A stretch of DNA of 64,000 nt. Source: Hymenobacter volaticus. Lineage in GTDB: Bacteria > Bacteroidota > Bacteroidia > Cytophagales > Hymenobacteraceae. The stretch lies in assembly GCF_022921055.1 (NCBI RefSeq), contig NZ_CP095061.1:2271501-2335500 (forward strand), in the 5' to 3' direction. The notes under the pieces were generated by a model, which saw nothing but the letters and a program-made list of their open reading frames with translations, was not told where the DNA came from and did no database searches. Position numbers and translations under genes: made by a program. Positions 9,964 through 59,651 of the stretch are shown here, in pieces (within the stretch, counting starts at the first letter, position 1; every line of letters starts with the position of its first letter).

Positions 9964-9984
9964 ACAAGAAATTAAACCGCATTA

Positions 9985-11364
9985 ATGTACGGCGGAAGCT
10001 CGACTAAGGTGTTGCTAGGCGCAATAGCAAGGGCTACTGCCTTAACTCCTCTACTTTTGCTGCTGATGTCATCCGCCCCAACGTCTGCTTCTGAAACTGC
10101 CGTAGCGCCAAGCAGTGGCCAATTCGTGCGCGGTTCGCTGGGGTCGGGAGTGGCCTTGGGGGCACGGGCGGGCGGGGCACTGCTGCTCAATAAGCTGCTG
10201 GCCGTGTATGGTGGGCCCGGCGGTCTTACGCTGCTGGCGCACTTTCAGAACCTGCTCGCTTTGTTCACCACGCTGCCCAATGATGGCACCCATGTAGGGG
10301 TGGTGAAATACTTGGCTCCGTTACGACCAACGAGTGGGCGCTACCGGGCCTGGCTCGGCGCTGCCGTAGCGCTGAATGGTGTTGCGTTGCTGCTTGGTTT
10401 GGGGCTGCTGTATTGGGCGCTGGGGCCTTTGGTGAGTGTATTTCAGCCCACTTTCGGGTGGTTGGTGCTGTTCGGGCTCGGGGTTGTACTGCTGACCCTG
10501 CACGCGTTAGTGGGCGCCATGCTGTTAGCGGCCAGTCAGTTGCGCGCCTACATTGTCTTAACCGTAATCTTAAGCGTGCTGGGTCCCGCGGCTGTAGCCG
10601 CCGTACTGCTGAGCCCTAAAGAAACTCCTGCGGTTTCCGAGGCTTTGCTGGCGTACCTCTTGGCGCAAGGAGCTACGCTGGTGCCAGCCCTGTGGCTGGC
10701 GCAGCGCCATGGCCTATTGCCGCGTTTGCGCGGGCGCCTTAGCAAAGTGGCTTTGCGGGAGCTAAGTAAGTTCCTGCTGATGGCCGTGGGGCTGCTGCTG
10801 TTCGGGAAGGCCGTGGATTTTGGGGTGCGCGAATTACTAGTGCGGCAATTTGGGCTAGCCGAAACCGACTTGTGGCAGGCCGTCGTCAAGCTCAGCGACA
10901 ACTATACTATGGTGCTGGCGGCCGTGATGAGCAGCGTGTACTACCCACGTTTGGCGGCTCTGGCAGTCCAACCGGCGGCCCAGAAACAATGGGTGCGGAC
11001 GGTGCTGCGCCTATTAATCCCGGTGCTAGCGGCTGGCTTGTTGCTGCTCTACGGGCTGCGCCAGTGGTTGCTGCCGCTGCTTTTTGAAGCTCGTTTTGCA
11101 CCGGCCGCCGACCTGCTGGCCCCCCAATTGCTAGCCGACTGGTTCCGCTTTATTGCTTGGCCGCTTATCATGGTATTCACAGCCCAGGCCCGGGTGGGGC
11201 GCTACGTGGCGGTGCAAGCGGGTTCGGCGGTGGTGTATGCAGCGGCACTGGCTGTGCTGGTACCTAGCTACGGGCTGTATGGGGCACTTTTGGCGGGTGT
11301 AGCACGCCAGGGGCTGCTTGTGTTGTGGTGTGCGTGGTACTTTCAGGAATACTGGCGGCGGTGA
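9985..11364 (+). CDS. Wzx-like polysaccharide flippase
   Basis: A very hydrophobic 459-residue protein with about 10-12 membrane helices, of the MOP superfamily that flips lipid-linked O-antigen or enterobacterial-common-antigen-type repeat units across the inner membrane. The N-terminal part contains the WzxE-like pattern of a helix ending NKLLAVYGGPGGLTLLAHFQ, then LPNDGTHVGVVKYLA. The first 27 residues are unlike the family, and an ATG at 10066 is a possible true start. It heads a stretch of surface-polysaccharide genes. Confidence 0.75.
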   Translation: MYGGSSTKVLLGAIARATALTPLLLLLMSSAPTSASETAVAPSSGQFVRGSLGSGVALGARAGGALLLNKLLAVYGGPGGLTLLAHFQNLLALFTTLPNDGTHVGVVKYLAPLRPTSGRYRAWLGAAVALNGVALLLGLGLLYWALGPLVSVFQPTFGWLVLFGLGVVLLTLHALVGAMLLAASQLRAYIVLTVILSVLGPAAVAAVLLSPKETPAVSEALLAYLLAQGATLVPALWLAQRHGLLPRLRGRLSKVALRELSKFLLMAVGLLLFGKAVDFGVRELLVRQFGLAETDLWQAVVKLSDNYTMVLAAVMSSVYYPRLAALAVQPAAQKQWVRTVLRLLIPVLAAGLLLLYGLRQWLLPLLFEARFAPAADLLAPQLLADWFRFIAWPLIMVFTAQARVGRYVAVQAGSAVVYAAALAVLVPSYGLYGALLAGVARQGLLVLWCAWYFQEYWRR

Positions 11365-45504: not shown

Positions 45505-46444
45505 ATGAAAGCGTATTTGCGGCTGCGTTGGCGGGTGATGAGTCGGCAGGTAGCTGAGCTTGGCTGGTGGCGGATTTTGCTGCTAGGTTCTCTGCTGCTC
45601 GTTGCGGTTGGCAGGGGCTAGTACTTCTTTCCAGTACCCAAACGGCGCAGTGGGTGGTGCCGCCGCTGGTGCTGTTCCTGCTAGGCAGCCAGCACCGCCG
45701 CCGTACTGACCTCGACTTTTTGCACCTGACCGCGCCTCGTTTTCGGCCGTGGGTAGCCACCGAATACGCACTATGGGGCTTGCCCGCGGCGCTGGTGTTG
45801 GTTGGTTTTGGACGAGTGGGCGCGGGGTTGTTGACAGTAACTTTAGCTCCGCTGGCAGCCTGGCTGTCGGCGGCGCGTGCCCGCACAACCCAGCACCAGA
45901 AGCGCAGTGCATTTCGCAGTGAGGCGTTTGAGTGGGTAAGTGGTTTCCGGCAAGCTGGCACCTGGCTGGGGTGGCTGGCGCTGGTAGCAGCTGCCGGTTG
46001 GTGGCGGCAATACGGGCTGGCTCCCGCTTTAACGCTGGGGGTTTGGGTGCTGTACATTTCCTCGTTTTATGCCACCCCGAGCCGTGGACCATGTTGTTGC
46101 CTGCGCTGCGCCAGCCGGGGGCGTGGCTGCGGCGTCGCGTCGCGTTGGGGCTGCTGTATTATGTAGCAACTGCCGCGCCATTTGCTTTACTAATGGGGAT
46201 GAGCCGAGCCGGTTGGGCCGGAGCCGGAGCACTGCTGATTTGGGGCGCAGCGGTGCTGGCGATGATGGTGCTGGCCCGGTACGCTTTTTACCCGCACGCC
46301 CTGCTGGTGCGCCTCACCCAGGGGGCAGTACTAGTGACTTGCCTGCTATTCGGCCATCCCATTTATCCGGCGCTGCTACTGGTAGCGTTTTTCGGGCTGG
46401 TCTGGAAAAGCCGGCAGCAACTCTCCACCTTTCGCCATGATTGA
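45505..46444 (+). CDS. ABC transporter permease (polytopic; two frameshifts)
   Basis: The repaired protein has 313 residues with 6-7 membrane helices and no recognisable binding motif. Two breaks occur. The first is at a G4 run (45614-45617), where one G restores VAVGRGLVLLSS. The second is at a C4 run (46075-46078), where one C restores FYATPEPWTMLLPAL. The gene overlaps the ATPase gene by 8 bases, so the two form a translationally coupled pair, and the ATPase has no membrane domain of its own. The transported substrate is unknown; export is a guess. Confidence 0.7.
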
Positions 46445-47138
46445 GATACGCCAGCTACATAAACGGTTCGGAAAGCACGAGGTGCTGCGCGACGTCAGCC
46501 TGAACTTGCTGCCAGGCACGCTGCACGGACTAGTAGGAGCAAACGGGGCTGGCAAAACTACCTTGCTCCACTGTCTCTACGGCCTGCACGCCGACTACCA
46601 GGGCACCGTGCGGGAAATTACAGGTTTGCCTGTTCGGCCTAACACGGGTCTGTTGCCCTACGAGCCTTATTTCTACCCGCGTCTCACGGGCCGCGAGTAC
46701 CTGGAGTTTACCCTGCAAGCCCGCGGCCGCTCGGTGGTAGATTTCGAGCCGTGGAACCAACTGTTGGAATTACCCCTCGACCAGTACGCCGAAGAGTATT
46801 CAGCGGGCATGAAGAAAAAGCTGGCCTTGCTGGCGCTGTTGGTGCAGCCGTTCCGCTACCTGATACTCGACGAACCATTCAATGGCCTCGACTTGAACAC
46901 CAACCTGCTGCTGATGGAAATCCTGCGCCGGTTGCGGCAGCAGGGTACCGGCATTCTGCTTACCTCGCACCTGCTTGGCTCGCTCACCGAACTCTGCGAC
47001 GAACTCACTGTGCTGGCCGACAACACCGTGCGCCGTCGCTACACTGCCGCTGAGTTCGGCCAGGTACAGCACGATTTGCTCGATGGATTCTACCAGGAGA
47101 AGCTAGCCCAGGTGCGGCAACTGCTGCCGGATAAATAA
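46437..47138 (+). CDS. ABC transporter ATP-binding protein
   Basis: A 233-residue nucleotide-binding subunit. Walker A is GANGAGKTTLL. The signature region reads YSAGMKKKLALLALL, with SAGM where LSGGQ is usual, as in many exporter-type ABC ATPases. Walker B is YLILDEPFNGLD and the H-loop His is in LLTSHLLGSL. It forms a pair with the overlapping permease gene. Intact. Confidence 0.93.
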   Translation: MIEIRQLHKRFGKHEVLRDVSLNLLPGTLHGLVGANGAGKTTLLHCLYGLHADYQGTVREITGLPVRPNTGLLPYEPYFYPRLTGREYLEFTLQARGRSVVDFEPWNQLLELPLDQYAEEYSAGMKKKLALLALLVQPFRYLILDEPFNGLDLNTNLLLMEILRRLRQQGTGILLTSHLLGSLTELCDELTVLADNTVRRRYTAAEFGQVQHDLLDGFYQEKLAQVRQLLPDK

Positions 47139-47254: not shown

Positions 47255-47970
47255 TCACAAAGCCAAGTAAAACGGCCCAAGCAACTCTTTGAATGCTGCG
47301 GAATATTCTTCGCCTTCCGTCACCACTAGTTCTTGCTGCAACACAGGCCGGGCTTGCGTGCCGAAGGTGGTGATGTGGCGGAGCGGTTTGCTGCCCGCCC
47401 GATGTTGAAGCACAAGGCGAGAAAGGGGAAACAAAGCCGCCCGCGAGGCTTCCAGCTCGAAATGCTGCATTTCGGGGGAGGGAGCAGCACCGTGAGTCGT
47501 CCTTCGGGTGCCAAGAAATGCATGGCGAAGTGGGCTAGTTCTGCAAAGGTCAGGGTATCGGGGGCGGTATGGCGGGCGGTGGCGCGGCGGGCGTCGGGTG
47601 GGCGTAGGGAATGCCGGAAGAAGGGCGGATTGCAGAGGATATGGTCGAAGGGGGAGGGCATTGTGGCAGCAAACTCGGCCAGGGCCTGCGCGTGCAGCGT
47701 GAGTTGATGAGCCCAGGGGCTTTCGGTGAAGTTGGTTTGTGCTTGAGTGGCGGCAGCTTCATCTAGTTCTACAGCTTCAATTTGGGCAATAGGATTGCGT
47801 TGCGCGGCCATCAGCGCCAATAGGCCGGTGCCAGTACCAATATCCAAAATGCGGCGGGCCCCCGCTACATCGGCAACTGCACCGAGTACGCACGCATCCG
47901 TACTGACTTTCATGGCGCAGTGTGCCTGCTCTATTCGGAATTGCTTGAACTGAAAATAGGTGTTAGCCAC
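47255..47970 (-). CDS. trmN6: tRNA1(Val) adenine-37 N6-methyltransferase TrmN6 (one frameshift)
   Basis: The repaired protein has 238 residues and methylates A37 of tRNA1(Val). The N-terminus reads VANTYFQFKQFRIEQ and HCAMKVSTDACVLGA, the SAM motif is DIGTGTGLLALMAAQ and the catalytic motif is LCNPPFF. The break is at a G5 run on the plus strand (47474-47478). One extra base restores LLPPPEMQHFELEASR and joins the C-terminal part. The start is GTG at 47970, where the family N-terminus begins; an in-frame ATG further up at 48063 precedes unrelated sequence. Confidence 0.88.
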
Positions 47971-48293
47971 GCGGCAGCAAAGAAAGGATAGAAACTCAAA
48001 GGTCTTGCTTTCAAAGTAAAGCCGACTAGCAGCTTGCTTGGAGAAGAGTTTCCGGGGTTGCACGTCCTTAATTCTATACTAGCAAGAGCTTGGCCATCAA
48101 GCGGAAACCACCTGTGCGACCTGAAGCCTACCGAGCGAAATAGTTTTCGCCGGATGTTGGGGAAAAGCAAGCCTAGCGAAACGGGTTTCGGAAGTACCTG
48201 CCTCTATTGGCTGGAAATGGCCTTTGGCACGCTGGCACTGGGTTTGAAAAAAGGAGAGAAGCACTTCTTTTTCAACTTAACCAGCTGTCTGTC
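47971..48293. other. 323-base divergent region upstream of the accessory cluster
   Basis: Between trmN6 and the first acidic/glycine-zipper gene. The only feature seen is the -24/-12-like element at 48233-48247. An open frame extending the first gene upstream to 48207 does not resemble the paralog's N-terminus. Confidence 0.45.
48233..48247 (+). promoter_or_regulatory. Sigma-54-like -24/-12 promoter upstream of the accessory cluster
   Basis: TGGCAC (48233-48238), five bases, then TTGA (48244-48247): all positions of the TGGCAC-N5-TTGC consensus except the last match, with correct GG-to-GA spacing. Transcription would start about 12 bases later, leaving a leader of about 35 bases before the ATG at 48294. 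A sigma-54-type activator gene sits at the far end of the cluster. Seen: the motif. Inferred: its use. Confidence 0.5.
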
Positions 48294-49148
48294 ATGCACA
48301 ACATCGATAGAACCTTACAGGAAATGGAATCTGGCCCGCTGGCCGCCGAGTACGAGGATGAGTACGAGTACGGTTCCCAGGGCGAGTACAACCAAGAGCA
48401 AGAATTCAACGGTGAATTCGAGCAGGAGTACAGCAACGAGTACGAAGCCAGCCAGCAAGAAAACCAAGAGCTGGAATTGGCTTACCAGCTGCTCGAAGTA
48501 AGCAACGAGCAGGAACTAAACATGTTCTTGGGCGACCTGATGAGCAAGGCGGCGGGTGCCGTTAAAAGCGCCGCTTCGAGTTTTGTGGCTTCGCCGGTAG
48601 GACAGTCGGTGGGGCAGTATCTGGTGAACGTGGGTCAAAACACACTGCCTCAGTTGGGGGCACAATATGGCGGCCAGGCGGGGGGCGCACTCGGTAGCCG
48701 GGCAGGCACCGCGCTGGGCGGCAGGCTAGGCCCGTTGGGTGCTCGTGCGGGTGGCTGGGTTGGCAATCAGGTCGGTAAAGCCGCGGGTAGTGCGGTAGGC
48801 GGCTGGGCGGGCACCAAGGCTGGCAATTTCCTCGCCAGCAATGCCAAACGAGTTTTTAACCTAGAGTTCGAAGGGCTCAACTTGGAAAGCCAAGAACTGG
48901 AAATATCTCGCGCCTATGTGCGCTTCGCTTCCGATGTAGCTCGCCGCGCCGCGCGCCTAGCCCGTCAGAACCCGCGGCTCACACCGTCGCAGCTGGGGCA
49001 ACGGGTGCTGGGCGTATCGGTGCCGCAACTCGCGCCGGGACTTCTCCAGGGCATTAAGGCAGAGAATGGGAGTGCCAACGGAACTGCGCAGCCGACGCGT
49101 GGCACCTGGGTGCGCCGTGGCCGGACCATTATCATTCTCAATGCCTGA
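48294..49148 (+). CDS. Acidic/glycine-zipper protein of unknown family, paralog 1
   Basis: A 284-residue protein with no signal peptide. Order: an acidic, aromatic segment (about 19-52, rich in EYE/EFE pairs), a helix with LLEVSNEQELNMFLGDL (67-82), a Gly/Ala zipper region that could insert in membranes (about 112-178), the motif LEFEGLNLESQELEISRAYV (about 190-209), a basic helical region, and a C-terminus GTWVRRGRTIIIL. The next gene encodes the same order. Members of this architecture are not assigned a function that I recognise. The ATG at 48294 is preferred over 48207 because the extra residues do not match the paralog. Confidence 0.75.
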   Translation: MHNIDRTLQEMESGPLAAEYEDEYEYGSQGEYNQEQEFNGEFEQEYSNEYEASQQENQELELAYQLLEVSNEQELNMFLGDLMSKAAGAVKSAASSFVASPVGQSVGQYLVNVGQNTLPQLGAQYGGQAGGALGSRAGTALGGRLGPLGARAGGWVGNQVGKAAGSAVGGWAGTKAGNFLASNAKRVFNLEFEGLNLESQELEISRAYVRFASDVARRAARLARQNPRLTPSQLGQRVLGVSVPQLAPGLLQGIKAENGSANGTAQPTRGTWVRRGRTIIILNA

Positions 49149-49274
49149 GCGGGGCCAAGTTGTAGCTGCTACCACGAGCGTGGCTGGCAGTAGAGGCGAA
49201 GGTCTCACTCCTGATTCCATCCTGAAAAATTATTCACACAGTTCAATAACACCTCACTTCTTACCCTTTTCGTC

Positions 49275-50209
49275 ATGTACCAGAACGAATTTGCACACGA
49301 GTTCGAGCAAGCCCTTGGCCATGAGCAAGAATACGGCAGCTCGCAAGAAACTTTCGAGTTCAACCCCGAATACCTGGGCGAGCTGAACGGCGAATCCTAC
49401 GAAATGAACGGGGAGTCGTATGAGATGAACGGCGAGGCCTACGAGCTGAACGGTGAGCTCAATGAAACCCAGGAAATGGAGATGGCCCACGAACTGCTCG
49501 AAGTTACCAACGAGCAAGAACTGAACATGTTCCTAGGCAAGCTTGTCAGAAGTGCTGGCCGCGCCGTGCGCAGCTTTGCCAACTCCTCGATTGGCAAGGG
49601 CATTGGTAGCGCCCTGAAGTCGGTGGCCAAAACGGCGCTGCCACTGGCGGGCAAAGCGCTCGGCTCGTTTGTGGGCGGCCCCATCGGGGTATGATTGGGG
49701 GCAAGCTCGGTTCGGCGGCCAGCAACTTGTTTGAGTTGGAGTTGGAAGGGTTGAGTCCCGAAGACCAGGAGTTTGAAACCGCCCGCGCCTTTGTGCGCTT
49801 TGCCAACTCGGCGGCCCGTCGGGGAGCAAGCATCCAGCGCCAGCGCCCCGGCATACAGCCTCGCGTTGCCGTGCGCACCGCTCTTGGCCAAGCCGCTCGG
49901 CAGCACGCCCCCGGCTTGTTGCGCACCCCAGGGAGCGCGCAGACCCGCGACGCGCGAGGCCGGTTTTCGCGGGGTCAGGCACCAAGCAGACGCCCTGGCG
50001 GTCCTCGCCGTGGTGCGCGTATCCCGTACGGTGGGCCAGGCATTGGGCCTAACTTCAGCAGCTACAACTTTGGCGGGAGCAATCTAAGCCAGGGCGACTA
50101 TGACGCTAGTGACGGCGCCGATTATGGCGCCGACGAGGGGCAAGGCGCGCAGCGCCCTACGCAGGGCACGTGGCAGCGTCAGGGCCGCACGCTGATTATT
50201 CAGCTCTAA
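49275..50209 (+). CDS. Acidic/glycine-zipper protein of unknown family, paralog 2 (one frameshift)
   Basis: The repaired protein has 311 residues. It has an acidic N-terminus with three NGE(S/A)YE(M/L) repeats (about 38-60), HELLEVTNEQELNMFLGKL (72-90), a glycine-zipper stretch (about 105-148), LELEGLSPEDQEFETARAFV (about 155-174), a basic Arg/Gly-rich region, and a C-terminus GTWQRQGRTLIIQL. The frame breaks at a G4 run (49686-49689); one extra G restores GGPIGGMIGGKLGS, continuing the zipper. It starts 126 bases after paralog 1, and the next gene follows 3 bases after its stop. Confidence 0.75.
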
Positions 50210-50212
50210 CCC

Positions 50213-51562
50213 ATGCGCCGCGCCGCCGATACCCAGTATTTGGCCAACGAGGCGCTCGGCTTGTTCAGTCGCCTGCAAACGGTGCGCTCGTTTGCGCTCG
50301 GCATGCCCATGGTGCTGGCCGCATCCGTGTCGGCGCCAGCGCAGGCCGCTATCAATGCCCACTTGGCCCGCGTGGCTTTCGACCTGCGCCGCCGCCTACG
50401 CGACTTTGTGCGCTGGGTACGAAGTCCCGAAAGCCAAGCCCTCAGCACCGAGCAAGCGCAAGCTCGCTTTGTGCTCCTGAAATTGCGCTTCAACAACCTG
50501 CTCGACCAAGTTGATATTTTCGCGGATGTGTTCAGCCAGCGCGGCGAGCATGGAACGGGCGTGTTCATGGCGGGCCTCGATGCCTTAGCTGAAGACGCGC
50601 TGAACTTGCCCGGCAATTATTACGACCCGCCGCCCCTCATCTGTTTTGTGGAGCGGGGCCACGGGGCGGCTATCCGCCGGGCGCGCACGCGCCTGCCGGG
50701 CGGCGACGACAACCCAGTCGGCGTGATTCAGATTCCGCGGGAGCGGATGGTGGGTAGCGGCATTGCGTCTTCCCTTATTCATGAGGTAGGGCACCAGGGC
50801 TCCGAGCTACTCGGCCTTACCAAGAGCATTCGGGAGGAAATAGATGCCCTAGTGGCACGGGGCTGCCCTCGGCAGGTAGGCTGGCAATTGCTTAGCCGCT
50901 GGCTCAACGAGATTCTGTCGGATTTCTGGGCCTTGGGGCACTTAGGTATCTCGGCTACGTATGGGCTGATGAGCGTGGTCAGTTTGCCGAGCTACTTCGT
51001 GTTCCGCATCGGTACCGACGGGCCACACCCGTTCCCCTGGATTCGAGTGCAAATCAGCCTGGCTTTGGGCGCTGCCTTGTTCCCGCACCCGCAGTGGGCG
51101 GCGCTAGCCGGGCAGTGGCAGGCGCTGTATCCCACCAAAGGGCTGGCGGCCGACAAGCAGCAGCTACTTAAGCTGCTACTCGGGTTGCTGCCCGAATTTG
51201 CCAAGCTGGTCTGCAACCACCGCTCCCCAACCCTAAAAGAGCGGCGCCTAGCCGACTTGTTTCCCATAGCGGAGCGGCAGCCGGCGCAATTGCAGGCCCT
51301 CTATCGGCAGTGGCAGGCCAACCCCCAATTGCGCGAGCAGACAACTCCTTCCCTGGCATTCGCCGTGGTGGGTCAAGCCAAAGCCGACGGCCAACTCACG
51401 GCTCCGGAAGAATACGCGGTGCTTACCGCCTTGCTCACCCGCTGGGCGCTCAACCGAGTTCGGAGCTATGGGCTGCCAGCGGCGGCGCTAGCCCGGCCGC
51501 TGCTCTCCGCCAACGGCACTTCTTTCAAACCTTTAACCCTCTCTACTCATGAACCTCAATAA
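50213..51562 (+). CDS. Putative zinc metallopeptidase-like protein (HEVGH motif)
   Basis: A 449-residue protein of no recognised family. A zincin-like motif HEVGH (His190, Glu191, His194) is followed 39 residues later by LNEILSDFWAL, where Glu233 could be the third zinc ligand and Asp237 a supporting residue. This HExxH...NExxSD layout is seen in gluzincin-type peptidases. The N-terminal 100 residues are helical, with an Ala-rich segment at about 30-47. No signal peptide is evident. The start follows the previous stop by 3 bases and the end overlaps the next gene by 14, indicating one transcript. It may process the neighbouring acidic proteins, which is inference. Confidence 0.65.
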   Translation: MRRAADTQYLANEALGLFSRLQTVRSFALGMPMVLAASVSAPAQAAINAHLARVAFDLRRRLRDFVRWVRSPESQALSTEQAQARFVLLKLRFNNLLDQVDIFADVFSQRGEHGTGVFMAGLDALAEDALNLPGNYYDPPPLICFVERGHGAAIRRARTRLPGGDDNPVGVIQIPRERMVGSGIASSLIHEVGHQGSELLGLTKSIREEIDALVARGCPRQVGWQLLSRWLNEILSDFWALGHLGISATYGLMSVVSLPSYFVFRIGTDGPHPFPWIRVQISLALGAALFPHPQWAALAGQWQALYPTKGLAADKQQLLKLLLGLLPEFAKLVCNHRSPTLKERRLADLFPIAERQPAQLQALYRQWQANPQLREQTTPSLAFAVVGQAKADGQLTAPEEYAVLTALLTRWALNRVRSYGLPAAALARPLLSANGTSFKPLTLSTHEPQ

Positions 51563-53615
51563 TATTTTGCAACGCGAACTGAGTGTTGACAGCACGCAGG
51601 TTTCGTTGGGCGACGATTCGACTCTAACCCTGGAGCTAAGCGTGGAAGGCACCGATAAGCCGTTGGAAGGCTGGTTGAAAGACTTCAGTGCCATCATGCT
51701 CGAGTTCGATACCTTGTCATCGAGCAGTGGGAATGCCCTGTTTGAATGGCAATACAGCGTAGAAAATGGTCGCTTAAAGCCCAAAAAAGGCACTCTTCTC
51801 GAAGAGGCCATCTTTAGCGACATCAGTTATCCAACGAATGACACGCTCTTAACCGATCGACAAAGTATTGCCCTGACTTGGGATATAACTGGCTGGGACT
51901 TGATTGGTACCTACACGGTGCGCGGCTATTTCACTAGGGAGTTGCGGGATAGGCAACCCCATGAGGCGGGCCCTGCCAACGCCGCACCGGTCGTTCAAGA
52001 GCTGGATTTCGGGCCGGTGAAGGTGCGGGTAGTCGACGAAGCCAGCATTCGTCCGACCAAGGTAACCATGCAGGAAGCCCGCCGCGAAGAAAGCCCCGAC
52101 CAGGCCTTGTGGGTACTGATCCGCAACCGGACCGTGAACTTCACGCGCTACCGCTCCTTCATTGATAAGGTGATGTGCTCGCAGGACCAGGATATGCGGG
52201 ACGTTCGGCTGAATGCCCGGGCGCAGTACCTGCCGTTTTCGCGGGTGGCGTCGTATAGCTTGCTCAAGTATGCCACCGAGGCTTTTTTGATGCAGGAAAC
52301 CGGTTTGGCCATCGACCGCAACACCTTCGAGCAGGACCCTGCCAACACGACCGGCAACCTCAACAAGAACCGACCGAAGACGCTGCCGGGCCGTCGGGGT
52401 TCCGACGCCGGCCGCCTGGCGGGTGCCCGCGTCGATATTAGCACGCTGCGCAACGACTACCTCGACCAACTCGGCAACGACGATGGCAACGCGCAAGTGC
52501 TGCCCTACTTCAAGCTGATTCGTGAAAAGCTGTCGGAAGTGCCGCTGAAAACAGACAGTGAGCTCAACGGAACTGCTTGCTACGGTATTCTGAAATCGAG
52601 GCTACAGGCGCCGCCGCTGATCGAGCTGATATGGTCGTACTGGCACGAGGAAGGCGGCTTGGTGCAAACGATGAACGCCATCAGCCTGCGTTTCCAGAAC
52701 GTACGCCGTAGTGGCCCCGGCCCCGATCCACTCGCTAACCTCAATCTGGACCCGTTGCGGCCGCTGAGTAATTTAATCTGGGGCTTCATTGAAGACGAGC
52801 GTTTTCGGCAGACCATTAATCGGCGCAACCAAGAGTACAAGTACGAGTATGGCTACTCCCTGAAAGGCCGCGCCGTGCAAAATGTTGAGGCGGCCGAACA
52901 CCGCTCCAACTTTCAGCGCTGTTTTCACAGCTTGCTGCGAACCGCAATGGAGTTCTACCAGCAAGCCAACTTCACCACAGTTATTCCCGATGGGTTCCCC
53001 ATCCTCAACCACCTGCGGGAGGTGCACCTGACACTGGCCGAAGGCGCCCACAACCAGTACGGTGACCTGCCGTGGGCAGCTCGGGCCGAAATGCTGGCCC
53101 AGCAGTGGCTGCTGGCTCGCCCCGAAATGCGCGAATTTATGGGTGGCCGTATCATGGTGCCTTACGCCGAGCCGTGGATGGACCGCGTCGACAACATGAA
53201 GCTGCTACAGGGCTGGAACTCGACCAACATCACGCACTTCCGCGACTTGGGCGTATTTGGGGAGCAACTGCTGCTGAGCATCCGCTACGGATCTTGGAAC
53301 GACCCCAACATCGGGGCTGTCAATGCGGCCAACTGGGCGCACTACTGGCGCGAGGAAATCCAGCGCTATATCCATGCCTACCAGGCCGTGACTGGGGTGG
53401 ATATTGCCTCCGATATTGTGGATGCCCGCGTGATGATGCCTTCCAACGAGGATCGGTATCTACAGCCTTCCGACCTGATTGACCGGCAGGTGGCTTTGCA
53501 GCAGCGGCAAACCCGCCGGCCTGCGCAATTGGCCGGGGGCGCTTTGGCCAACGGCATAGGCAATGCAATGCCCGTAGCCGTGCCCCTGCCGCGCCGGAGC
53601 AACAACTCGGAATAA
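51549..53615 (+). CDS. 688-residue protein of unknown function
   Basis: No family recognised. The first ~180 residues look like a beta-sandwich (alternating strands such as DSTLTLELSVEG and TYTVRGYFTRELRD). The rest is mostly helical and polar, with the segments WSYWHEEGGLVQTMNAISLR, EYKYEYGYSLKGRAVQNVEA and WAARAEMLAQQWLLARPEMR. The C-terminus is Pro/Arg-rich. There is no signal peptide or membrane helix. It overlaps the HEVGH gene by 14 bases, so co-expression is likely. It could be a structural or scaffold partner; that is a guess. Confidence 0.6.
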   Translation: MNLNNILQRELSVDSTQVSLGDDSTLTLELSVEGTDKPLEGWLKDFSAIMLEFDTLSSSSGNALFEWQYSVENGRLKPKKGTLLEEAIFSDISYPTNDTLLTDRQSIALTWDITGWDLIGTYTVRGYFTRELRDRQPHEAGPANAAPVVQELDFGPVKVRVVDEASIRPTKVTMQEARREESPDQALWVLIRNRTVNFTRYRSFIDKVMCSQDQDMRDVRLNARAQYLPFSRVASYSLLKYATEAFLMQETGLAIDRNTFEQDPANTTGNLNKNRPKTLPGRRGSDAGRLAGARVDISTLRNDYLDQLGNDDGNAQVLPYFKLIREKLSEVPLKTDSELNGTACYGILKSRLQAPPLIELIWSYWHEEGGLVQTMNAISLRFQNVRRSGPGPDPLANLNLDPLRPLSNLIWGFIEDERFRQTINRRNQEYKYEYGYSLKGRAVQNVEAAEHRSNFQRCFHSLLRTAMEFYQQANFTTVIPDGFPILNHLREVHLTLAEGAHNQYGDLPWAARAEMLAQQWLLARPEMREFMGGRIMVPYAEPWMDRVDNMKLLQGWNSTNITHFRDLGVFGEQLLLSIRYGSWNDPNIGAVNAANWAHYWREEIQRYIHAYQAVTGVDIASDIVDARVMMPSNEDRYLQPSDLIDRQVALQQRQTRRPAQLAGGALANGIGNAMPVAVPLPRRSNNSE

Positions 53616-53633
53616 GGCGGATCAGAACGTTCC

Positions 53634-53662
53634 GGTCCGGCAGCGTCCTGCGCTGTCGGGCC
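53634..53662 (+). other. Hairpin in the gap inside the cluster
   Basis: A 12-pair stem (GGTCCGGCAGCG with CGCTGTCGGGCC, allowing G-T pairs) begins 19 bases after the 688-residue gene. It is not followed by a T-run. It could be an attenuator or processing site splitting the cluster. Confidence 0.4.
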
Positions 53663-53837
53663 GATTGACGTTTCGTTCGAGGTTGCGAAAAGTGAAGCTT
53701 CCTCCAAGCCTTGGCTATTGATAGTAAAGGCTTGTGGAATCGTCAGTTGGCCCAAGGTACTACCACGGCGGGTCTGTGCTTCACGTGTGTTTAGGCCGTG
53801 TTATGCTTCCATTTTCTGGGTCACACCTGTTGACTTT

Positions 53838-54964
53838 ATGCTCGACTTCACTTCCGCTCTGTATCTCGGTCCACCTACTTTTTCTGTTCCAACTAACCTG
53901 CCACTCACTACGGGCCGGCCAGCAGCCTTGCAGGAGCCCGGTTGGCAGCGTCGAATTGCCGAGATGGTAGCTAATCGGCAAGGATTGGAAACCGGCCTGT
54001 TGGCGCCCTCCACGCTGCATCTGTTTTGGGATGTGCTCGCCCTGGCTCCGTCCAGCGCGGTCATATTCATCGACCAAGCTATGTACCCGATAGGCCACTG
54101 GGGCGCGGCGCGAGCAGCACTGCGTGGCTTGCCCGTAGTGCCCTTCGACGCCGACAATCTGCCAGCTCTGCGCCGCTTGCTGCACATCTACCGGCAGCAG
54201 GGCCACATCCCGTGGTTACTTACCGATGGCTGGCGCCTAGCGCAGGAGGGCCCCGCGCCGCTAAGCTGCTACCAAGAATTGCTGCGCCCCGATCCGCGTA
54301 GCGTCCTACTCCTCGACGACACCCAGGCTTTCGGAGTGCTAGGAGCAAAGCCTAGCGCCCAGCATCCACTAGGGCAGGGTGGTGGTGGCAGCCTCCCTTA
54401 CGCGGGCGTGCGCGGTCCGGGTATTGTGTGCATCAGTTCCCTGGCCAAGGGCTTGGGCGTGCCGGTGGCCGTGCTAACGGGCAGCCGGAAGTGGGTGGCC
54501 CGCTTTGCGCGGCGCAGTGCCACGCGGGTGCACAACAGCCCGGTATCGAACTGGCACGCTTGGGCAGCCGGGCAAGCTTTGCACCGCGACGCGGCCAGAA
54601 CCGGCAATGCGGCCCGGCAGCAGTTGGCGCAGCGCATCCGTGAATTTCGACGGAAGATGGGGCAGCTGGCTGGCAACTGGCAGGCGGCTGGTTTCCGGTG
54701 CAGAAACTAACCTTGCCTACCTCCGTGGCGGCACTCAGCTTGCATGCCTACTTAGAGCTACAGGGTATCCAGGCGCTACTAACCACCAATGCCCAGCAAC
54801 CTACGGTACCGCAAGTGGCATTCTGTCTGCGCGCCGACCATTCCCCCGCCGATATAGCGCACCTAACGCAGGCGTTGTTGGCCTGGGCAACCAAAAACAG
54901 TTTTCCATTTTCCATTCCCAACGTCAGCTTACGCCATGAAACTCAACATGCCGTTTACACCTGA
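53838..54964 (+). CDS. Fold-type I PLP enzyme, KBL/AONS-like (one frameshift)
   Basis: The repaired protein has 375 residues and is related to 2-amino-3-ketobutyrate CoA ligase and 8-amino-7-oxononanoate synthase. PLP-site motifs are LLLDDTQAFGVLGA (Asp160, Asp161, Gln163 where His is usual) and SSLAKGLGVPVAVLTG with the probable Schiff-base Lys204. The frame breaks around 54692-54696; one extra base restores AAGFPVQKLTLP and joins the rest. The Gln for His change and the shortened N-terminus suggest altered acyl-CoA chemistry or a different amino substrate. It overlaps the next gene by 29 bases. Confidence 0.7.
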
Positions 54965-55865
54965 GTCGCGGCGCCTTGCGGCCCCGGCTCCGGCCAAAGA
55001 CTTAGCTACCGTTTATACGCGTGGGGGGCAAACGTTGCGGGTGCCGTTGCGCCCAGCGCCGGTGGGTACCGCCGGGTGTGTGGGCCACCCCGAGTTGCAG
55101 CTAATGCGCTGGCTGCGCAACCGGGCAACTGCCGAGCCGGGTTTTCCGGTGCGAGTACGGAGTGTACTACTGGTAGTGCAACGAGGCGGATGTTCCGTTT
55201 GCCAAGAAGCCTTATACCGTTTTTTGAGTCGGTTTCGCCTTAACACCAAGCTGCGACTCGTGCGAACGGGTGCACACCCAATGGGGTGTGGCTGCGGTTG
55301 CGCGCATTGCCAGGCAAGCAGCCGTGTTCGCAAGTCGTTGCTAGACGAACTGCTGGGCGAGACGCTGCTGGAAATTGAGCGTGAACAGGAAGAAGAGTAC
55401 CGCAAGTTCAACCGCCAGTTTAGGCGAACCATGGCGCAAACCATAGCAAAGGACGGCAAGCATCCGCTCGGCTTTTTGGTGAAAGACGGGAAAGGGGGCA
55501 AACCCGTGTGGCGTTCAGCGAAAGATCGGCGGGTAGATGCCGGCCACGTGACGCCCGTCTTGACGCTGAGCCGCCGCAAGCAGCTTACCGAGCGCCTCGC
55601 CATCCAGGACCGCCACCTCAATCGCTCAGACGGTGCCCGCATGGGTGCTAGGGGCAGAGGCAGCACTATTCAAGTCATCGACATCAAAGGGGTGCCCGTG
55701 GATGTAGCTACGGCCCGAAAATGGAATGCCCAAAAGCTGCTGCCCGACTATTACGTGACGCCAGCCTATATAGAAGCCCACCGAGTGAAAGGCTGGTCAG
55801 CCAACGGGGAATTGTTTTTTGCAGTGGGCTCCCAGAAAGATTTGATATCGGAAACCGGCTTTTGA
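54936..55865 (+). CDS. Cys-rich protein with deaminase-like and GH-nuclease-like motifs
   Basis: A 309-residue protein not assigned to a family. Near the N-terminus, HPE (His51, Glu53) and GGCSVC (Cys86, Cys89) imitate the HxE...CxxC zinc site of the cytidine-deaminase fold. A second Cys cluster (GCGCGCAHC, residues 117-125) follows. A coiled acidic helix (about 136-160) leads to a C-terminal part with KHPLGFLVKDG, VDAGHVTP (Gly203-His204) and AIQDRHLNRSDGARMG, recalling HNH/ENDO VII-type polymorphic toxin nucleases. These assignments are motif-level inference. It could be a toxin-like effector or a modifying enzyme of the cluster. Confidence 0.55.
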   Translation: MKLNMPFTPESRRLAAPAPAKDLATVYTRGGQTLRVPLRPAPVGTAGCVGHPELQLMRWLRNRATAEPGFPVRVRSVLLVVQRGGCSVCQEALYRFLSRFRLNTKLRLVRTGAHPMGCGCGCAHCQASSRVRKSLLDELLGETLLEIEREQEEEYRKFNRQFRRTMAQTIAKDGKHPLGFLVKDGKGGKPVWRSAKDRRVDAGHVTPVLTLSRRKQLTERLAIQDRHLNRSDGARMGARGRGSTIQVIDIKGVPVDVATARKWNAQKLLPDYYVTPAYIEAHRVKGWSANGELFFAVGSQKDLISETGF

Positions 55866-55944
55866 GCAGGCTTCGGCTCGGTTTAGCTACGCTTTTCTCA
55901 CAGCAGCTTTCGTACGATTTTACAACTCCGTAAGGCCGCGCACC

Positions 55945-57435
55945 ATGCCGTATCCACCTCGCCCGACTACCGCCGCAAAACCTAAATGGCAACGGCAAAC
56001 CCTGGTGCAACTCCAGCAACTTATAGCTTTCCCTAGCATCAGCACCGACCCGAAGTATGCTGGAGCGGTGCAGGCTTGCGCCGGGTGGTTAGCCACGCAT
56101 TTGCGGAAGGTTGGGCTCGATGGGGTGCGGGTATTTCAGACGCCGGGCCACCCCCTTGTGTACGCCGAAAAACGGGTGGGCCCCCAGCGACCCACGCTGC
56201 TTATCTACGGCCATTACGATGTGCAACCCGTGGCGCCCGTTTCCGCCTGGACGGTGCCGCCTTTTGGCGGTCTTATTCGCGGCAATAAACTATACGGCCG
56301 CGGCGCCTCCGACGACAAAGGCCAGTTCTTCATCCATATCAAGGCCCTGGAATTGCTGCTAACGGCCCGCCGGCCTTTGCCTCTGAACGTGAAGCTGCTA
56401 CTGGAAGGCGAAGAAGAAATTGGTAGCCCTAACCTCGAGGCGTTCGTGCGCCAACACCAGCGCCTGCTTTGCGCCGATTGGGCTGTGTTGTCGGATACCA
56501 ACATGCTTTCTGCTCACCAGCCTTCGCTCACATATGGCTTGCGGGGTTCCTTGGCAGTGGAGCTAGAAGTACGCGGCCCACAGACCGAGCTGCACTCCGG
56601 TATATTTGGCGGGGCCGTGTTAAACCCGTTGCAGGCATTAAGTGAAATGCTGGCGGCTCTGCACGACGCGGATGGCCGCGTAGCTATTCCGGGTTTCTAC
56701 GAGGCAGTGGTGCCAGCGTCAGCTGCTGAACGGGGTTACTTGCGCCGTCATGGCCCGCCCGATGCCCAACTGCTGAGCGAGGCGCAAGTAGAGCAAGGGT
56801 GGGGCGAGCCAGGCTACAGCCTTTATGAGCGCACAACCTTACGGCCCTCGCTCAGTGTTACGGGCCTAAGCGGCGGCTACCAGGGCGAAGGGGTGAAGTC
56901 GGTGGTGCCGCCGCGAGCCAGTGCTAAACTAAGCTTCCGGCTGGCGACAGGGCAAGATCCGCATGAAGTAGAACAGCAGTTGCGAACCTATCTGCGCTGC
57001 ATTGCGCCCCTACAAGTGCAAGTAACGCTTCGTAGCCAGCTGCACGCACCGCCCTATACTGTGTCGCCCACGCACCCCGTAATGCAGGCTGCCGCTCAAG
57101 CCTACACCGAAGGATTTGGGCGCACTCCAGTGTTGCAGCGCTCGGGAGGGACCATTCCGGTGGTGAGTGTTTTCGAGCAGCACTTAGGCATCCCGACGGT
57201 GCTCATGGGGTTTGGGCTGCCGGATGACCGAAAGCACGGCCCCGACGAGTTTTTGTATCTCCCTAATTTCTGGCGCGGCATTCGTACCAGCTTGGCCTTC
57301 CTGCACCGGCTGGGCCAATTTCCTGTCACTTCATCTTCACGGCCATGCTTATCATCGACTGCCACTGCCACGCCGGCAAAGGCGACGGCCTCACCGGCCC
57401 CTGGGATACCGACGCACCACTTGCAGCGTATCTGA
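55945..57435 (+). CDS. M20-family metallopeptidase (dipeptidase-like)
   Basis: A 496-residue zinc exopeptidase of the M20 (CNDP/PepV-like) family. The zinc and catalytic residues are visible: IYGHYDVQPVAP (His, Asp), GRGASDDKGQF (Asp), LLEGEEEIGSPNL (Glu pair) and HGPDEFLYLPNFWRG (His). The dimerisation domain sits between them, with TELHSGIFGGAVLNP. It normally cleaves dipeptides or N-acyl amino acids in the cytoplasm. Its 3' end overlaps the amidohydrolase by 91 bases, and the final ~45 residues are low-complexity, so the true C-terminus may be earlier than this stop. Confidence 0.9.
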   Translation: MPYPPRPTTAAKPKWQRQTLVQLQQLIAFPSISTDPKYAGAVQACAGWLATHLRKVGLDGVRVFQTPGHPLVYAEKRVGPQRPTLLIYGHYDVQPVAPVSAWTVPPFGGLIRGNKLYGRGASDDKGQFFIHIKALELLLTARRPLPLNVKLLLEGEEEIGSPNLEAFVRQHQRLLCADWAVLSDTNMLSAHQPSLTYGLRGSLAVELEVRGPQTELHSGIFGGAVLNPLQALSEMLAALHDADGRVAIPGFYEAVVPASAAERGYLRRHGPPDAQLLSEAQVEQGWGEPGYSLYERTTLRPSLSVTGLSGGYQGEGVKSVVPPRASAKLSFRLATGQDPHEVEQQLRTYLRCIAPLQVQVTLRSQLHAPPYTVSPTHPVMQAAAQAYTEGFGRTPVLQRSGGTIPVVSVFEQHLGIPTVLMGFGLPDDRKHGPDEFLYLPNFWRGIRTSLAFLHRLGQFPVTSSSRPCLSSTATATPAKATASPAPGIPTHHLQRI

Positions 57436-58162
57436 AGTGGGCGCAGGAAGCAGGCATTCAGAAAACCGTGCTGTTTGCGGCCTTCCACTCCGACTATGCC
57501 GCGGCCAACCGGCAAGTGGCCCGGTTGGTGCGCCAAAGCCCCGAGCGTTTCTACGGTTTCGCCTTTGTACATGCCCAGCGCGACCGGGGCCGGGTGCTGG
57601 AAATGGTAGGCACTGCTGTGCAACAGTACGGATTCGTGGGTATCAAGTGCCACCGCTACGACGCCCGCATCAGCCGCGAAATCTGCGACGTGGCCCGCGC
57701 CTTCCGATTGCCAGTACTCTACGATGTGGTAGGCGAAATATCGGTGGTGGAGCTACTCGGCGAGCAATACCCCGACGTCAATTTCATTATTCCGCACCTG
57801 GGCAGCTTCTCCGATGATTGGCGGGCGCAATCTGGCCTCATCGATCAGCTCGTGCGCTTTCCTAACATCTACACCGACACGTCCGGCGTGCGCCGCTTCG
57901 ATATTCTACAACGTGCTCTCGACCGTGTTGGCCCCGCAAATTCCTGTTCGGTTCCGACGGGCCGTGGCTGCACCCTGGCGTCGAGCTAAGCAAAATTGCG
58001 GCCTTGCACCTGCCTCTCGAAGATGCCAAACTCGTGCTGGCGGGAAACCTGTTACGCCTTATCAGTCAAGTGCGCCCCGAACCGGCCCAGCCGCCGCGTA
58101 TAGCCGTAGCAACCGAAGTAGCCAACGAGTGGCGCGACCCGTGGCTGCTAGCGAAATCGTGA
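57345..58162 (+). CDS. Amidohydrolase 2-family metal hydrolase (one frameshift)
   Basis: The repaired protein has 272 residues, a TIM-barrel amidohydrolase. The N-terminus has the metal site DCHCHAGKGDG (His-x-His). Later are IKCHRYD, VIPHLGSFSDDW-like strand ends and, after repair, FLFGSDGPWLHPGVELSKI with the catalytic Asp. The frame breaks at C4 (57932-57935); one extra C restores VGPRKFLFGSDG and carries the gene to 58162. The family hydrolyses or decarboxylates small cyclic or carboxylated substrates. It starts inside the M20 gene and ends 97 bases before the opposing regulator. Confidence 0.85.
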
Positions 58163-58259
58163 AGTGGGGAGGCGGGGGTTGCAGAGTGAGTTTGCTGCTT
58201 CCTGGCGCCAACTGCGCGGGTTGAATGGCCAGCACACGCTGCAACCACCGCACGCTTAG

Positions 58260-59651
58260 CTAACTTACTACTTCGCCACTGCGACGGTGCATTTGCAGAA
58301 TTCTTTCGCTGCAGCCTAAGCGGTGAGCAGCCAGCTTCAGGTTGCCATTTTCGTGCGTGATGGCCACTTTCTTGGCAATTTCTGTTACCTGATCCTTTAT
58401 TTCTTTCAGGCCCAAACCCCGATAGAGCAAGCTCGTTACGCCGATTTCCAGTTCGGGTGTGCCCGGGCCTTCGTTGGTACCGAAGCCAGCGAAGTCGGGC
58501 CAATCGGAGCGGGGTATGTCGCCGAGGGTAATGGGGCCTTCGCCGAGGTGCTTGTTGGCAATCCGGTTGATGAGCTGTTGTAACTCGCGCACGTTGCCGG
58601 GATAGTCGCGCAGCAGTAGAAAGTCGTACACCTGCCGATCTACGGGTTGCTGGATGTGGTGCCGCTCGCGAAAGAAATGCTCGGCAAGCACTACAATGTC
58701 TTCTTTTCGCTCGCGCAGGGGCGGCAGTTGGCAAGTCCAGCCGGAAATCCGGTAGTACAAGTCCTGCCGAAATCGGCCTTTACGGACTTCTTCAGCCAAG
58801 TCGCGGTTGGTGGCACTTACCAGCCGAAAACTAGCCTGTCGCCAGGTGTTGCTGCCCACCCGCTTGTATGTGCCCTCCTGAAGCGCCCGCAGCAGCTCGG
58901 CCTGTAAGGGCAAGGGCAATTCGCCCAGCTCATCCAAAAACAGCGTGCCTTCGTGGGCTAAGGCCAGCGCTCCGTCGCGGGTGCTGATAGCGTTGGTGAA
59001 GGCACCCTTCTCGTGCCCAAACAACTCACTGCCCGACAGGCCCGGAATCAGGTTGGTGCAGTCCACTACCACACAGTCGCGCTTGTTCGGTCGAGGGTCG
59101 AGGCGGTGAATTTCCTGGGCCACCAACTCTTTACCGGTGCCGCTTTCCCCCATAATCAGCACTTGGCAGTTGGAGAGCGACATATCCACGAGCTGCCGCA
59201 GCGTATTGATCCAGCACTTGCTGCGACCAACCAAGCGCTGCTGCAGGTCCACAACCTTTTCCTCCAGCACCGCCCAATACGCAAGTCGCGAAGCTACAAT
59301 TTGCACCGGCTTTTCCACTTCAAACCAAGCAAACACCTCGGCTGCGCCGCTGCGCAGCAGCGCCCAGGTGCTCGTACTCGCCAGCCGCCCCACCGACACG
59401 GCAATAATGCGTGTGTCGGAATAGAAGCTAAAGGCATCCATAGCTTCCTGCACTTCGGCGAGCTTGGAATCTTGATCCAGGAAAATAATGCCCGCGCCAG
59501 TAGGGAAGTCGTTCATGTGCAGCGCGGCCAACTCAATGCCGCTAGCTTCCAACTGCCCAATAATATCGGCCAGTAGCCCATGCTGATGCGTGAAGGTTTG
59601 AAACCACACAGTCGATTTGAAGCCCATAACGACGGTAGTTTGATAAGGCAA
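58260..59651 (-). CDS. Sigma-54-interacting AAA+ transcriptional activator with variant GAFTNA loop
   Basis: A 463-residue enhancer-binding-protein-like regulator, with a second possible start at 59627. Residues 1-125 look like a divergent receiver (FLDQDSK, then LRSGAAEVFAWFEVEKP). The AAA+ core has GESGTGKE (168-175), CTNLIP, LFGHEKGAFTNA (211-221), TLFLDELGEL (Walker B) and RQDLYYRISGWTCQLPPLRE. GAFTGA is replaced by GAFTNA in the sigma-54-contacting loop. The C-terminal helix pair (NLKLAAHRLGCSERILQMH) is Fis-like. It is convergent with the accessory cluster, whose first gene has a -24/-12-like element. Confidence 0.88.
   Translation of the reverse strand: MPYQTTVVMGFKSTVWFQTFTHQHGLLADIIGQLEASGIELAALHMNDFPTGAGIIFLDQDSKLAEVQEAMDAFSFYSDTRIIAVSVGRLASTSTWALLRSGAAEVFAWFEVEKPVQIVASRLAYWAVLEEKVVDLQQRLVGRSKCWINTLRQLVDMSLSNCQVLIMGESGTGKELVAQEIHRLDPRPNKRDCVVVDCTNLIPGLSGSELFGHEKGAFTNAISTRDGALALAHEGTLFLDELGELPLPLQAELLRALQEGTYKRVGSNTWRQASFRLVSATNRDLAEEVRKGRFRQDLYYRISGWTCQLPPLRERKEDIVVLAEHFFRERHHIQQPVDRQVYDFLLLRDYPGNVRELQQLINRIANKHLGEGPITLGDIPRSDWPDFAGFGTNEGPGTPELEIGVTSLLYRGLGLKEIKDQVTEIAKKVAITHENGNLKLAAHRLGCSERILQMHRRSGEVVS

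What the first reader, a model, noticed from the sequence alone, without database searches (positions are those of the whole stretch)
48294..59651. Candidate undescribed gene cluster: acidic glycine-zipper proteins with a zincin, PLP enzyme, nuclease-like protein, two metal hydrolases and a sigma-54 activator
Eight same-strand genes, with several overlaps (14, 29 and 91 bases) and a 3-base junction, encode proteins rarely expected together. Two paralogous acidic/glycine-zipper proteins, an HEVGH protein, a 688-residue unknown and a KBL-like enzyme come first. They are followed by a Cys-rich protein with toxin-like motifs, an M20 peptidase and an amidohydrolase. The cluster converges on a sigma-54-type activator. 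A coherent reading is production, processing and detoxification or recycling of an exported or membrane-active product, but this is inference.
Basis: partly seen in the sequence, partly recalled or inferred. Interest (0 to 1): 0.85.

Follow-up and report, generated by a model that had tools for sequence, protein, structure and literature searches.

The report
Undescribed bacterial toxin-cargo gene cassette
This stretch of a Hymenobacter-like genome carries a nine-gene unit, also found in distantly related bacteria, that pairs a fixed set of unknown proteins with an interchangeable slot for toxin-like and cell-wall-cutting enzymes, and it looks like an undescribed way of making or delivering toxic proteins.

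Summary
The cluster is real and conserved. Among 62 distinct loci with enough flank, all found through the 688-residue protein (BIG), glycine-zipper (GZ) genes precede BIG in 62, the HEVGH zincin (ZN) is scored in 60, the BioF/KBL-like PLP enzyme in 58, the amidohydrolase in 56 and the sigma-54 activator in 61 (56 convergent). Named hosts span seven phyla. Among 99 relatives, GZ occurs in all 11 BIG-positive genomes, PLP and activator in 10.

The position after PLP is a variable slot: peptidoglycan-binding proteins with amidase, muramidase, glucosaminidase, NlpC/P60 or M74 domains, GIY-YIG, Ntox5, AID/APOBEC-like deaminases, proteases. A -24/-12 sigma-54-type site precedes the first gene far more often than other genes.

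GZ, ZN and BIG reach no curated Pfam or NCBIfam cut-off; BIG's core models confidently (pTM 0.90) without a solved fold match.

Best reading: a sigma-54-controlled toxin/effector assembly or delivery system; mechanism inferred (0.5). No exporter was recognised; the window has no room for an immunity gene. Three genes are split across two frames here.

The parts
48233..48248 (+). sigma-54-type -24/-12 promoter candidate TGGCACTGGGTTTGAA, 45 bases upstream of the GZ1 start codon
   Evidence: read in the sequence; the region upstream of the first GZ gene scores 18 or more in 53 of 74 loci against 65 of 636 controls
48294..49148 (+). GZ1: 284-aa protein, acidic N-terminus (net charge -21 over residues 1-90), 17 GxxxG motifs, RRGRTIIIL tail
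   Evidence: family found upstream of BIG in 62 of 62 loci
49275..50209 (+). GZ2: paralogue of GZ1; here split over two frames (49275-49694 and 49691-50209), intact in L045
50213..51562 (+). ZN: 449-aa stand-alone zincin-type protein; H190, E191, H194, Q195, E233 and D237 invariant in the 33 aligned (33 of 83 ZN ORFs)
51549..53615 (+). BIG: 688-aa signature protein; variable N-terminal beta-sandwich (1 to about 130) plus a strongly conserved all-helical core (modelled as 162-667)
53838..54964 (+). PLP: BioF/KBL-like alpha-oxoamine-synthase-fold enzyme, here split over two frames (53838-54710 and 54698-54964); intact 375 aa in L032/L045
54936..55865 (+). variable-slot (cargo) protein: conserved N-terminal region with HPE and CxxC (deaminase-like, only weakly supported) plus C-terminal Ntox5 toxin domain (residues 163-274)
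55945..57435 (+). M20-family dipeptidase (NF006053, 502.6 bits over a cut-off of 441); optional member of the cassette
57345..58162 (+). amidohydrolase (Amidohydro_2), here split over two frames (57345-57989, then out of frame to about 58162)
58260..59651 (-). S54: sigma-54-type AAA+ activator with C-terminal HTH, convergent; GAFTNA in place of the usual GAFTGA

Best explanation
A sigma-54-controlled toxin/effector system with a constant core and interchangeable cargo. Shown by sequence: GZ, ZN and BIG form the core; PLP, amidohydrolase and the activator nearly always accompany it; the position after PLP holds several kinds of toxin-like and peptidoglycan-degrading proteins; some slot proteins carry a GZ domain in the same chain, and many outside Bacteroidota share a short N-terminal motif (FExxPF-like). 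Inferred: the activator fires a -24/-12 promoter in response to an unknown cue. The acidic glycine-zipper proteins insert in or permeabilise membranes and carry cargo across them. ZN cleaves GZ or cargo. BIG is the conserved scaffold or enzyme that recognises cargo and assembles the complex. PLP and the amidohydrolase make or remove a chemical modification or small molecule. The lack of room for an immunity gene in the window and in 31 of 56 loci suggests targets that are not close kin, or cargo that is harmless until processed.
For: Linkage: of 99 relatives, 11 have BIG and the same 11 have GZ, plus two weak GZ hits elsewhere; PLP (E up to 1e-20) and the activator (E up to 1e-120) occur in the 10 BIG-positive same-genus genomes and in none of the other 89. 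In a phylum sample of 296 genomes, 4 have BIG and all 4 have ZN next to it. Conserved order in 62 loci. Varied cargo: 76 of 117 slot ORFs were scanned with Pfam; PG_binding_1 in 22, Amidase_2 5, AID/APOBEC-type 4, Ntox5 3, M74 2, GIY-YIG 2, Trypsin 2, and one each of muramidase, glucosaminidase, NlpC/P60 and papain (architectures). Shared N-terminus with several kinds of C-terminus in 14 aligned Hymenobacter/Emticicia cargo proteins: all 12 invariant columns lie within residues 24-106. GZ domain in one chain with an enzyme, e.g. L113: PG_binding 100-154, GZ 373-547, Amidase_2 616-741. N-terminal F[EN]xxP[FLE] in 27 of 117 slot ORFs against 3 of 595 others. Promoter site: 53 of 74 against 65 of 636. 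A glycine zipper is reported to be needed to translocate a T6SS effector into prey (PMC10240207, abstract seen).
Against: No transporter or injection machine was recognised among the cassette genes (no dedicated search for exporters or signal peptides was run). The window and 31 of 56 loci have no room for an immunity gene, unlike classical polymorphic toxins; the other 25 keep a gap or a small ORF. Max Kyte-Doolittle over 19 residues in GZ1 is only 1.04, low for a transmembrane helix. PLP, amidohydrolase and M20 have no assigned role in delivery. The FExxPF pattern was written after looking at the sequences, is inflated by related species, and is absent from the Bacteroidota slot ORFs, including this window's; a looser form is only modestly enriched in GZ proteins (25 of 169 against 19 of 666). 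In three of the seven long slot ORFs with a GZ domain, GZ ends the protein, so the fusion to an enzyme is not general. BIG's residues could equally mean an enzyme. No experiment exists.
Confidence: 0.5

Rival explanations
1. A self-directed cell-envelope programme: the cassette drives regulated remodelling or lysis of the producer's own wall (release of contents or vesicles), with the wall-cutting cargo acting at home.
For: The most common recognisable cargo is peptidoglycan binding or degrading; lack of room for an immunity gene in the window and in 31 of 56 loci fits self-directed use; sigma-54 control fits a stress or developmental switch.
Against: Cargo also includes GIY-YIG, Ntox5, AID/APOBEC-like and protease domains, odd for wall remodelling; the system is patchy, in 4 of 296 genomes sampled in the phylum.
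Confidence: 0.2
2. A protein or peptide maturation (RiPP-like) pathway: GZ proteins are the precursors, ZN the processing protease, BIG and the PLP enzyme the modifying enzymes, and the slot proteins accessory or resistance factors.
For: Two GZ paralogues come first, followed by a protease-type protein and a strongly conserved one with many invariant polar residues; PLP and amidohydrolase families are metabolic.
Against: GZ proteins are mostly about 200-340 aa, not short precursors; the cargo diversity and the GZ-enzyme fusions are not explained.
Confidence: 0.15
3. An effector-preparation module for a known injection machine (eCIS/PVC or T6SS) encoded elsewhere in the genome.
For: Ntox5 is listed with PVC-delivered toxins (PMC3482391, passages seen); some BIG-positive genomes have a tail-sheath match (4 of 11, one of them just under the family cut-off) or PAAR (5 of 13).
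Against: Tail-sheath matches are not clearly enriched: 4 of 11 BIG-positive against 19 of 88 BIG-negative genomes; five of the 11, among them the nearest one, G057, have neither match; the matches found lie far from the cassettes or on other contigs.
Confidence: 0.1

Closest known systems
Polymorphic toxin systems (Zhang et al. 2012, PMC3482391, passages seen)
   Same: Shared N-terminal part with interchangeable C-terminal domains, including Ntox5; deaminase-type domains in other slot proteins
   Different: No room for an adjacent immunity gene in the window and in 31 of 56 loci, no known export pathway domain over its cut-off; embedded in a fixed core of GZ, ZN, BIG, PLP, amidohydrolase and activator that the passages I saw do not describe
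PVC/eCIS toxins with PVC-metallopeptidase (PMC3482391, passages seen)
   Same: Zinc protease linked to diverse toxins, often without immunity genes
   Different: Here the zincin is a separate protein with HExGHQ...ExxxD, not HExxHxxQ fused to the toxin; no clear genome-wide association with a tail sheath
Cdz glycine-zipper bacteriocins of Caulobacter (PMC5380434, passages seen)
   Same: Two glycine-zipper proteins encoded side by side, possible membrane or surface activity
   Different: CdzC/D are 86 and 84 aa, exported by type I genes of the same cluster, with immunity gene cdzI; GZ1 here is 284 aa (GZ2 311 aa in L045) with an acidic N-terminus, and no exporter was recognised among the conserved cassette genes
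Tde1-type T6SS effector with a glycine zipper (PMC10240207, abstract seen)
   Same: GxxxG segment N-terminal to an enzyme in one chain, as in L113
   Different: Tde1 is a T6SS effector that binds adaptor Tap1; no such machine accompanies the cassette
RtcR-like bacterial enhancer-binding proteins
   Same: AAA+ and HTH parts of the activator are nearest RtcR_PspF2 in PADLOC-DB
   Different: Far below the RtcR equivalog cut-off (257.8 against 650); the first 106 residues of the stretch searched are not covered by the match

Membership tests
Polymorphic toxin system | constant N-terminal region with variable C-terminal toxin domain | tested here: met
   14 cargo proteins aligned: all 12 invariant columns within residues 24-106 of the window protein, several kinds of C-terminus; two rows are short, which limits the test
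Polymorphic toxin system | recognised toxin domain | tested here: met
   Ntox5 28 bits over a cut-off of 25
Polymorphic toxin system | adjacent immunity gene | tested here: not met
   in the window 79 bases separate the slot gene from M20; 31 of 56 loci have neither a small plus-strand ORF nor a gap of 210 bases between BIG and amidohydrolase, 25 do, in part because the ORF picker hid a cargo ORF. An immunity gene elsewhere is not excluded
Polymorphic toxin system | known export pathway | tested here: inconclusive
   no export-pathway domain over its cut-off in the Pfam results; one PT-VENN just under its cut-off (19.9 against 20.3)
PVC/eCIS toxin | HExxHxxQ metallopeptidase fused N-terminal to the toxin | tested here: not met
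   ZN is a separate protein with HExGHQ; signature
PVC/eCIS toxin | contractile apparatus in locus or genome | tested here: inconclusive
   sheath match in 4 of 11 BIG-positive genomes, away from the cassette; toxins can be encoded away from the apparatus
Cdz system | glycine-zipper (GxxxG) repeats | tested here: met
   17 GxxxG in GZ1
Cdz system | small proteins of about 85 aa | tested here: not met
   284 aa against 84 and 86 aa
Cdz system | type I exporter and immunity gene in the cluster | tested here: inconclusive
   none among the conserved families, but no dedicated exporter search was run; an ABC ATP-binding gene (by eye) lies 1.2 kb upstream in the window, outside the conserved set
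sigma-54-dependent operon | -24/-12 promoter | tested here: met
   53 of 74 loci at score 18 or more against 65 of 636 controls and 7 of 74 on the other strand; in the window the -12 C is replaced
sigma-54-dependent operon | activator with GAFTGA loop | tested here: inconclusive
   GAFTGA in 50 of 73 distinct activators, GAFTNA in 16 including the window, GAFTHA in 1, no match to the pattern in 6
sigma-54-dependent operon | rpoN in the genome | tested here: met
   14 of 14 genomes tested
BioF/KBL (equivalogs) | score over the curated cut-off | tested here: not met
   bioF 30.7 against 426.45, kbl 12.2 against 493, on the split N-terminal part only
M20 dipeptidase (NF006053) | score over the curated cut-off | tested here: met
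   502.6 against 441
RtcR | score over the curated cut-off | tested here: not met
   257.8 against 650
Any fold in the PDB (BIG core) | significant structural match | tested here: inconclusive

The most novel reading that the evidence does not exclude
GZ-ZN-BIG is a new class of protein-delivery apparatus, spread over Gram-negative and Gram-positive phyla and independent of the numbered secretion systems: BIG, a helical protein with no solved structural relative found, loads cargo by an N-terminal FExxPF-type tag or a GZ fusion, GZ proteins open the target membrane, and ZN releases the cargo.
Probability: 0.3. Interest if true: 0.93.

Novelty: categorically new. Interest (0 to 1): 0.8.

Why it matters
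A nine-gene unit whose three core protein families reach no curated family cut-off, with thousands of homologues of its signature protein (4,405 scored, a lower bound), conserved order across seven phyla (by record titles), a predicted sigma-54 switch and an interchangeable toxin slot points to an undescribed conflict or delivery system. The cassette gives a ready marker (BIG) to find new effectors, including bacterial AID/APOBEC-like deaminases, and a testable regulon.
Full report
1. What is there. The window (G000; its closest protein relatives are named Hymenobacter) holds, on the plus strand from 48294 to about 58162, two glycine-zipper proteins (GZ1, GZ2), a zincin-type protein (ZN), a 688-residue protein (BIG), a BioF/KBL-like PLP enzyme, a protein with an Ntox5 domain (slot protein), an M20 dipeptidase and an amidohydrolase, with a convergent sigma-54-type activator at 58260-59651. 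Three of these genes (GZ2, PLP, amidohydrolase) and a neighbouring methyltransferase are each split over two frames relative to the intact copies in Hymenobacter sp. YC55, while the other cassette genes are intact at 88-98% identity. I cannot tell assembly error from mutation.

2. Families. Pfam finds Ntox5 (28 bits, cut-off 25), M20 and Amidohydro_2, and nothing at the curated cut-off for GZ1, the two halves of GZ2, ZN, BIG or the two parts of PLP. NCBIfam finds a dipeptidase over its cut-off, weak bioF, and sigma-54 activator families below their cut-offs. PDB sequence searches find nothing at E 0.001 for ZN (one chance-level hit, E 0.21) and nothing for BIG, BioF for PLP (E 1.4e-7) and amidohydrolases for the last gene (E 2.9e-5).

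3. Conservation. Of 99 relatives, 11 have BIG. GZ occurs in the same 11, plus two weak hits (E 1.6e-4 and 3.7e-5) inside long ORFs. PLP (E up to 1e-20) occurs in the 10 BIG-positive genomes of the same genus and in none of the other 89, and so does the activator (E up to 1e-120), even where it lies 5-9 kb beyond the cassette. The eleventh, G070, has a more distant activator beside its cassette and no PLP found. Of 296 genomes sampled across the phylum, 4 have BIG, each with ZN beside it; a fifth has only a diverged ZN. A scan of 84,980 species genomes gave 213 relatives of BIG, of which 80 loci were kept, from Bacteroidota, Actinomycetota, Pseudomonadota, Myxococcota, Nitrospira, Chloroflexi and Gemmataceae by record title, some of them metagenome bins. 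With the window, plasmid records of Rhizobium, Ensifer and Paraburkholderia and unnamed relatives this made 87 distinct loci; 62 have more than 5 kb upstream and 7.5 kb downstream. In these, GZ precedes BIG in 62 (two or more in 54), ZN is scored in 60, PLP in 58, amidohydrolase in 56, activator in 61 (56 downstream and convergent, 3 downstream on the same strand, 2 upstream), M20 in 11, and a further GZ gene or domain in the downstream slot in 34.

4. The variable slot. Between PLP and amidohydrolase lies cargo that changes from locus to locus. Of 117 slot ORFs I gave 76 to Pfam: PG_binding_1 in 22, Amidase_2 in 5, AID/APOBEC-type families in 4, Ntox5 in 3, Peptidase_M74, Trypsin and GIY-YIG in 2 each, and Glucosaminidase, DUF2272, Muramidase, NlpC/P60, papain, OmpA and PT-VENN in 1 each. 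Single examples: a Rhizobium protein with PG_binding, DUF2272 and Glucosaminidase; a Nitrospira protein with PG_binding, Muramidase and Amidase_2; an Ensifer protein with PG_binding and GIY-YIG; a Pontibacter protein with an AID/APOBEC-like domain over its cut-off; of the 20 proteins in those two calls, L049 and L061 matched nothing. In Hymenobacter and Emticicia the slot proteins share a conserved N-terminal region, while the C-termini are of several kinds: all 12 invariant columns of 14 proteins lie in residues 24-106 (two rows are short). That region carries HPE and CxxC, as in deaminases, in the window protein, but not in all members. Seven loci have the GZ domain inside a slot ORF of more than 450 aa; in L113 and L118 a long tail follows it, in L113 shown to hold the amidase, in L095 and L120 a shorter one, and in L088, L102 and L110 GZ ends the protein. 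Many cargo proteins outside Bacteroidota begin with a short motif like FETIPF or FEMLPF: 27 of 117 slot ORFs against 3 of 595 other ORFs within the first 70 residues. I wrote that pattern after seeing the sequences, and related species inflate it; it is absent from the window's own slot protein. A looser form in GZ proteins is only modestly enriched (25 of 169 against 19 of 666).

5. Immunity. In the window 79 bases separate the slot gene from M20. Of the 56 full-flank loci with amidohydrolase, 31 have neither a small plus-strand ORF (70-220 aa) nor a plus-strand gap of 210 bases between BIG and amidohydrolase; 25 have one or the other, some because my mechanical picking hid a cargo ORF behind an antisense one. 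So an adjacent immunity gene is not a constant part, but it is not excluded everywhere.

6. Regulation. A recalled -24/-12 consensus was scored in the 360 bases around the start of the first GZ gene. It reaches 18 or more in 53 of 74 loci against 65 of 636 upstream regions of other genes in the same loci (Mann-Whitney p 4.7e-21) and 7 of 74 on the opposite strand; eight loci have a full TGGCACG-N4-TTGC[AT] match. Related loci are not independent, so the p-value is too small. The window has TGGCACTGGGTTTGAA at 48233-48248. In most Hymenobacter loci the -12 element reads TTG[AG]A, and the activator loop reads GAFTNA in 16 loci of Hymenobacter and kin; GAFTGA stands in 50 of 73. rpoN is present in 14 of 14 genomes tested.

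8. Mechanism. Shown: a linked, co-inherited gene set with fixed core, variable toxin-like cargo and a sigma-54-type promoter. Inferred: GZ proteins act on membranes (a glycine zipper is reported to be required for translocation of a T6SS effector, PMC10240207, abstract); ZN processes; BIG binds cargo or is the scaffold; PLP and amidohydrolase modify. Against: no exporter recognised, weak hydrophobicity of GZ1. I put 0.5 on a toxin or effector system acting on other cells, 0.2 on self-directed wall remodelling or lysis, 0.15 on a maturation pathway, 0.1 on service to a known injection machine. The last is weakened because sheath matches are not clearly enriched (4 of 11 against 19 of 88) and five of the 11 BIG-positive genomes have neither sheath nor PAAR match.

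9. Novelty. The cargo is of a known kind; the machinery matched nothing I searched. Defining features of polymorphic toxins, PVC toxins and Cdz were tested and at least one of each is not met (see Membership tests). Eight answered paper searches found no description; the library lacks most subscription papers and all preprints, so an unseen description is possible.

Noticed in passing
window 47258-48021, 49649-49700, 54659-54692, 57932-57935: Four genes within about 11 kb (a methyltransferase and three cassette genes) are split over two frames relative to Hymenobacter sp. YC55, while their neighbours are intact; possibly assembly errors.
   Followed up: partly
window 58260-59651 and 15 other loci of Hymenobacter and kin: The activator's sigma-54 contact loop reads GAFTNA instead of GAFTGA, and most Hymenobacter promoters have a changed -12 element (TTG[AG]A); a possible co-change of loop and promoter. 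L041, of the same order, has GAFTGA.
   Followed up: partly
L056:12874-13938 and slot proteins of L057, L058, L060: Slot proteins of Pontibacter, Rufibacter, Sabulibacter and Adhaeribacter look alike, and four slot proteins match AID/APOBEC-like deaminase families in Pfam; L056 is the one shown by name.
   Followed up: partly
L125:8098-12348: A genome of another family carries a minimal form: acidic protein, diverged ZN, possible diverged BIG and an M15-like protein by eye; no PLP or activator recognised nearby.
   Followed up: partly
L128:7558-15949 (Paraburkholderia sp. PGU19 plasmid): A second diverged arrangement: acidic protein, diverged ZN, three unknown proteins, M20 and amidohydrolase; no activator or PLP recognised.
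   Followed up: partly
L126 (G267) 9415-11364: The profile search reports one TAA inside the BIG match although an open 649-aa BIG ORF is seen; a nearby ORF reads as unknown residues over a long stretch.
   Followed up: no
window 46437-47138: An ABC ATP-binding gene (by eye) lies about 1.2 kb upstream of GZ1, outside the conserved set.
   Followed up: no
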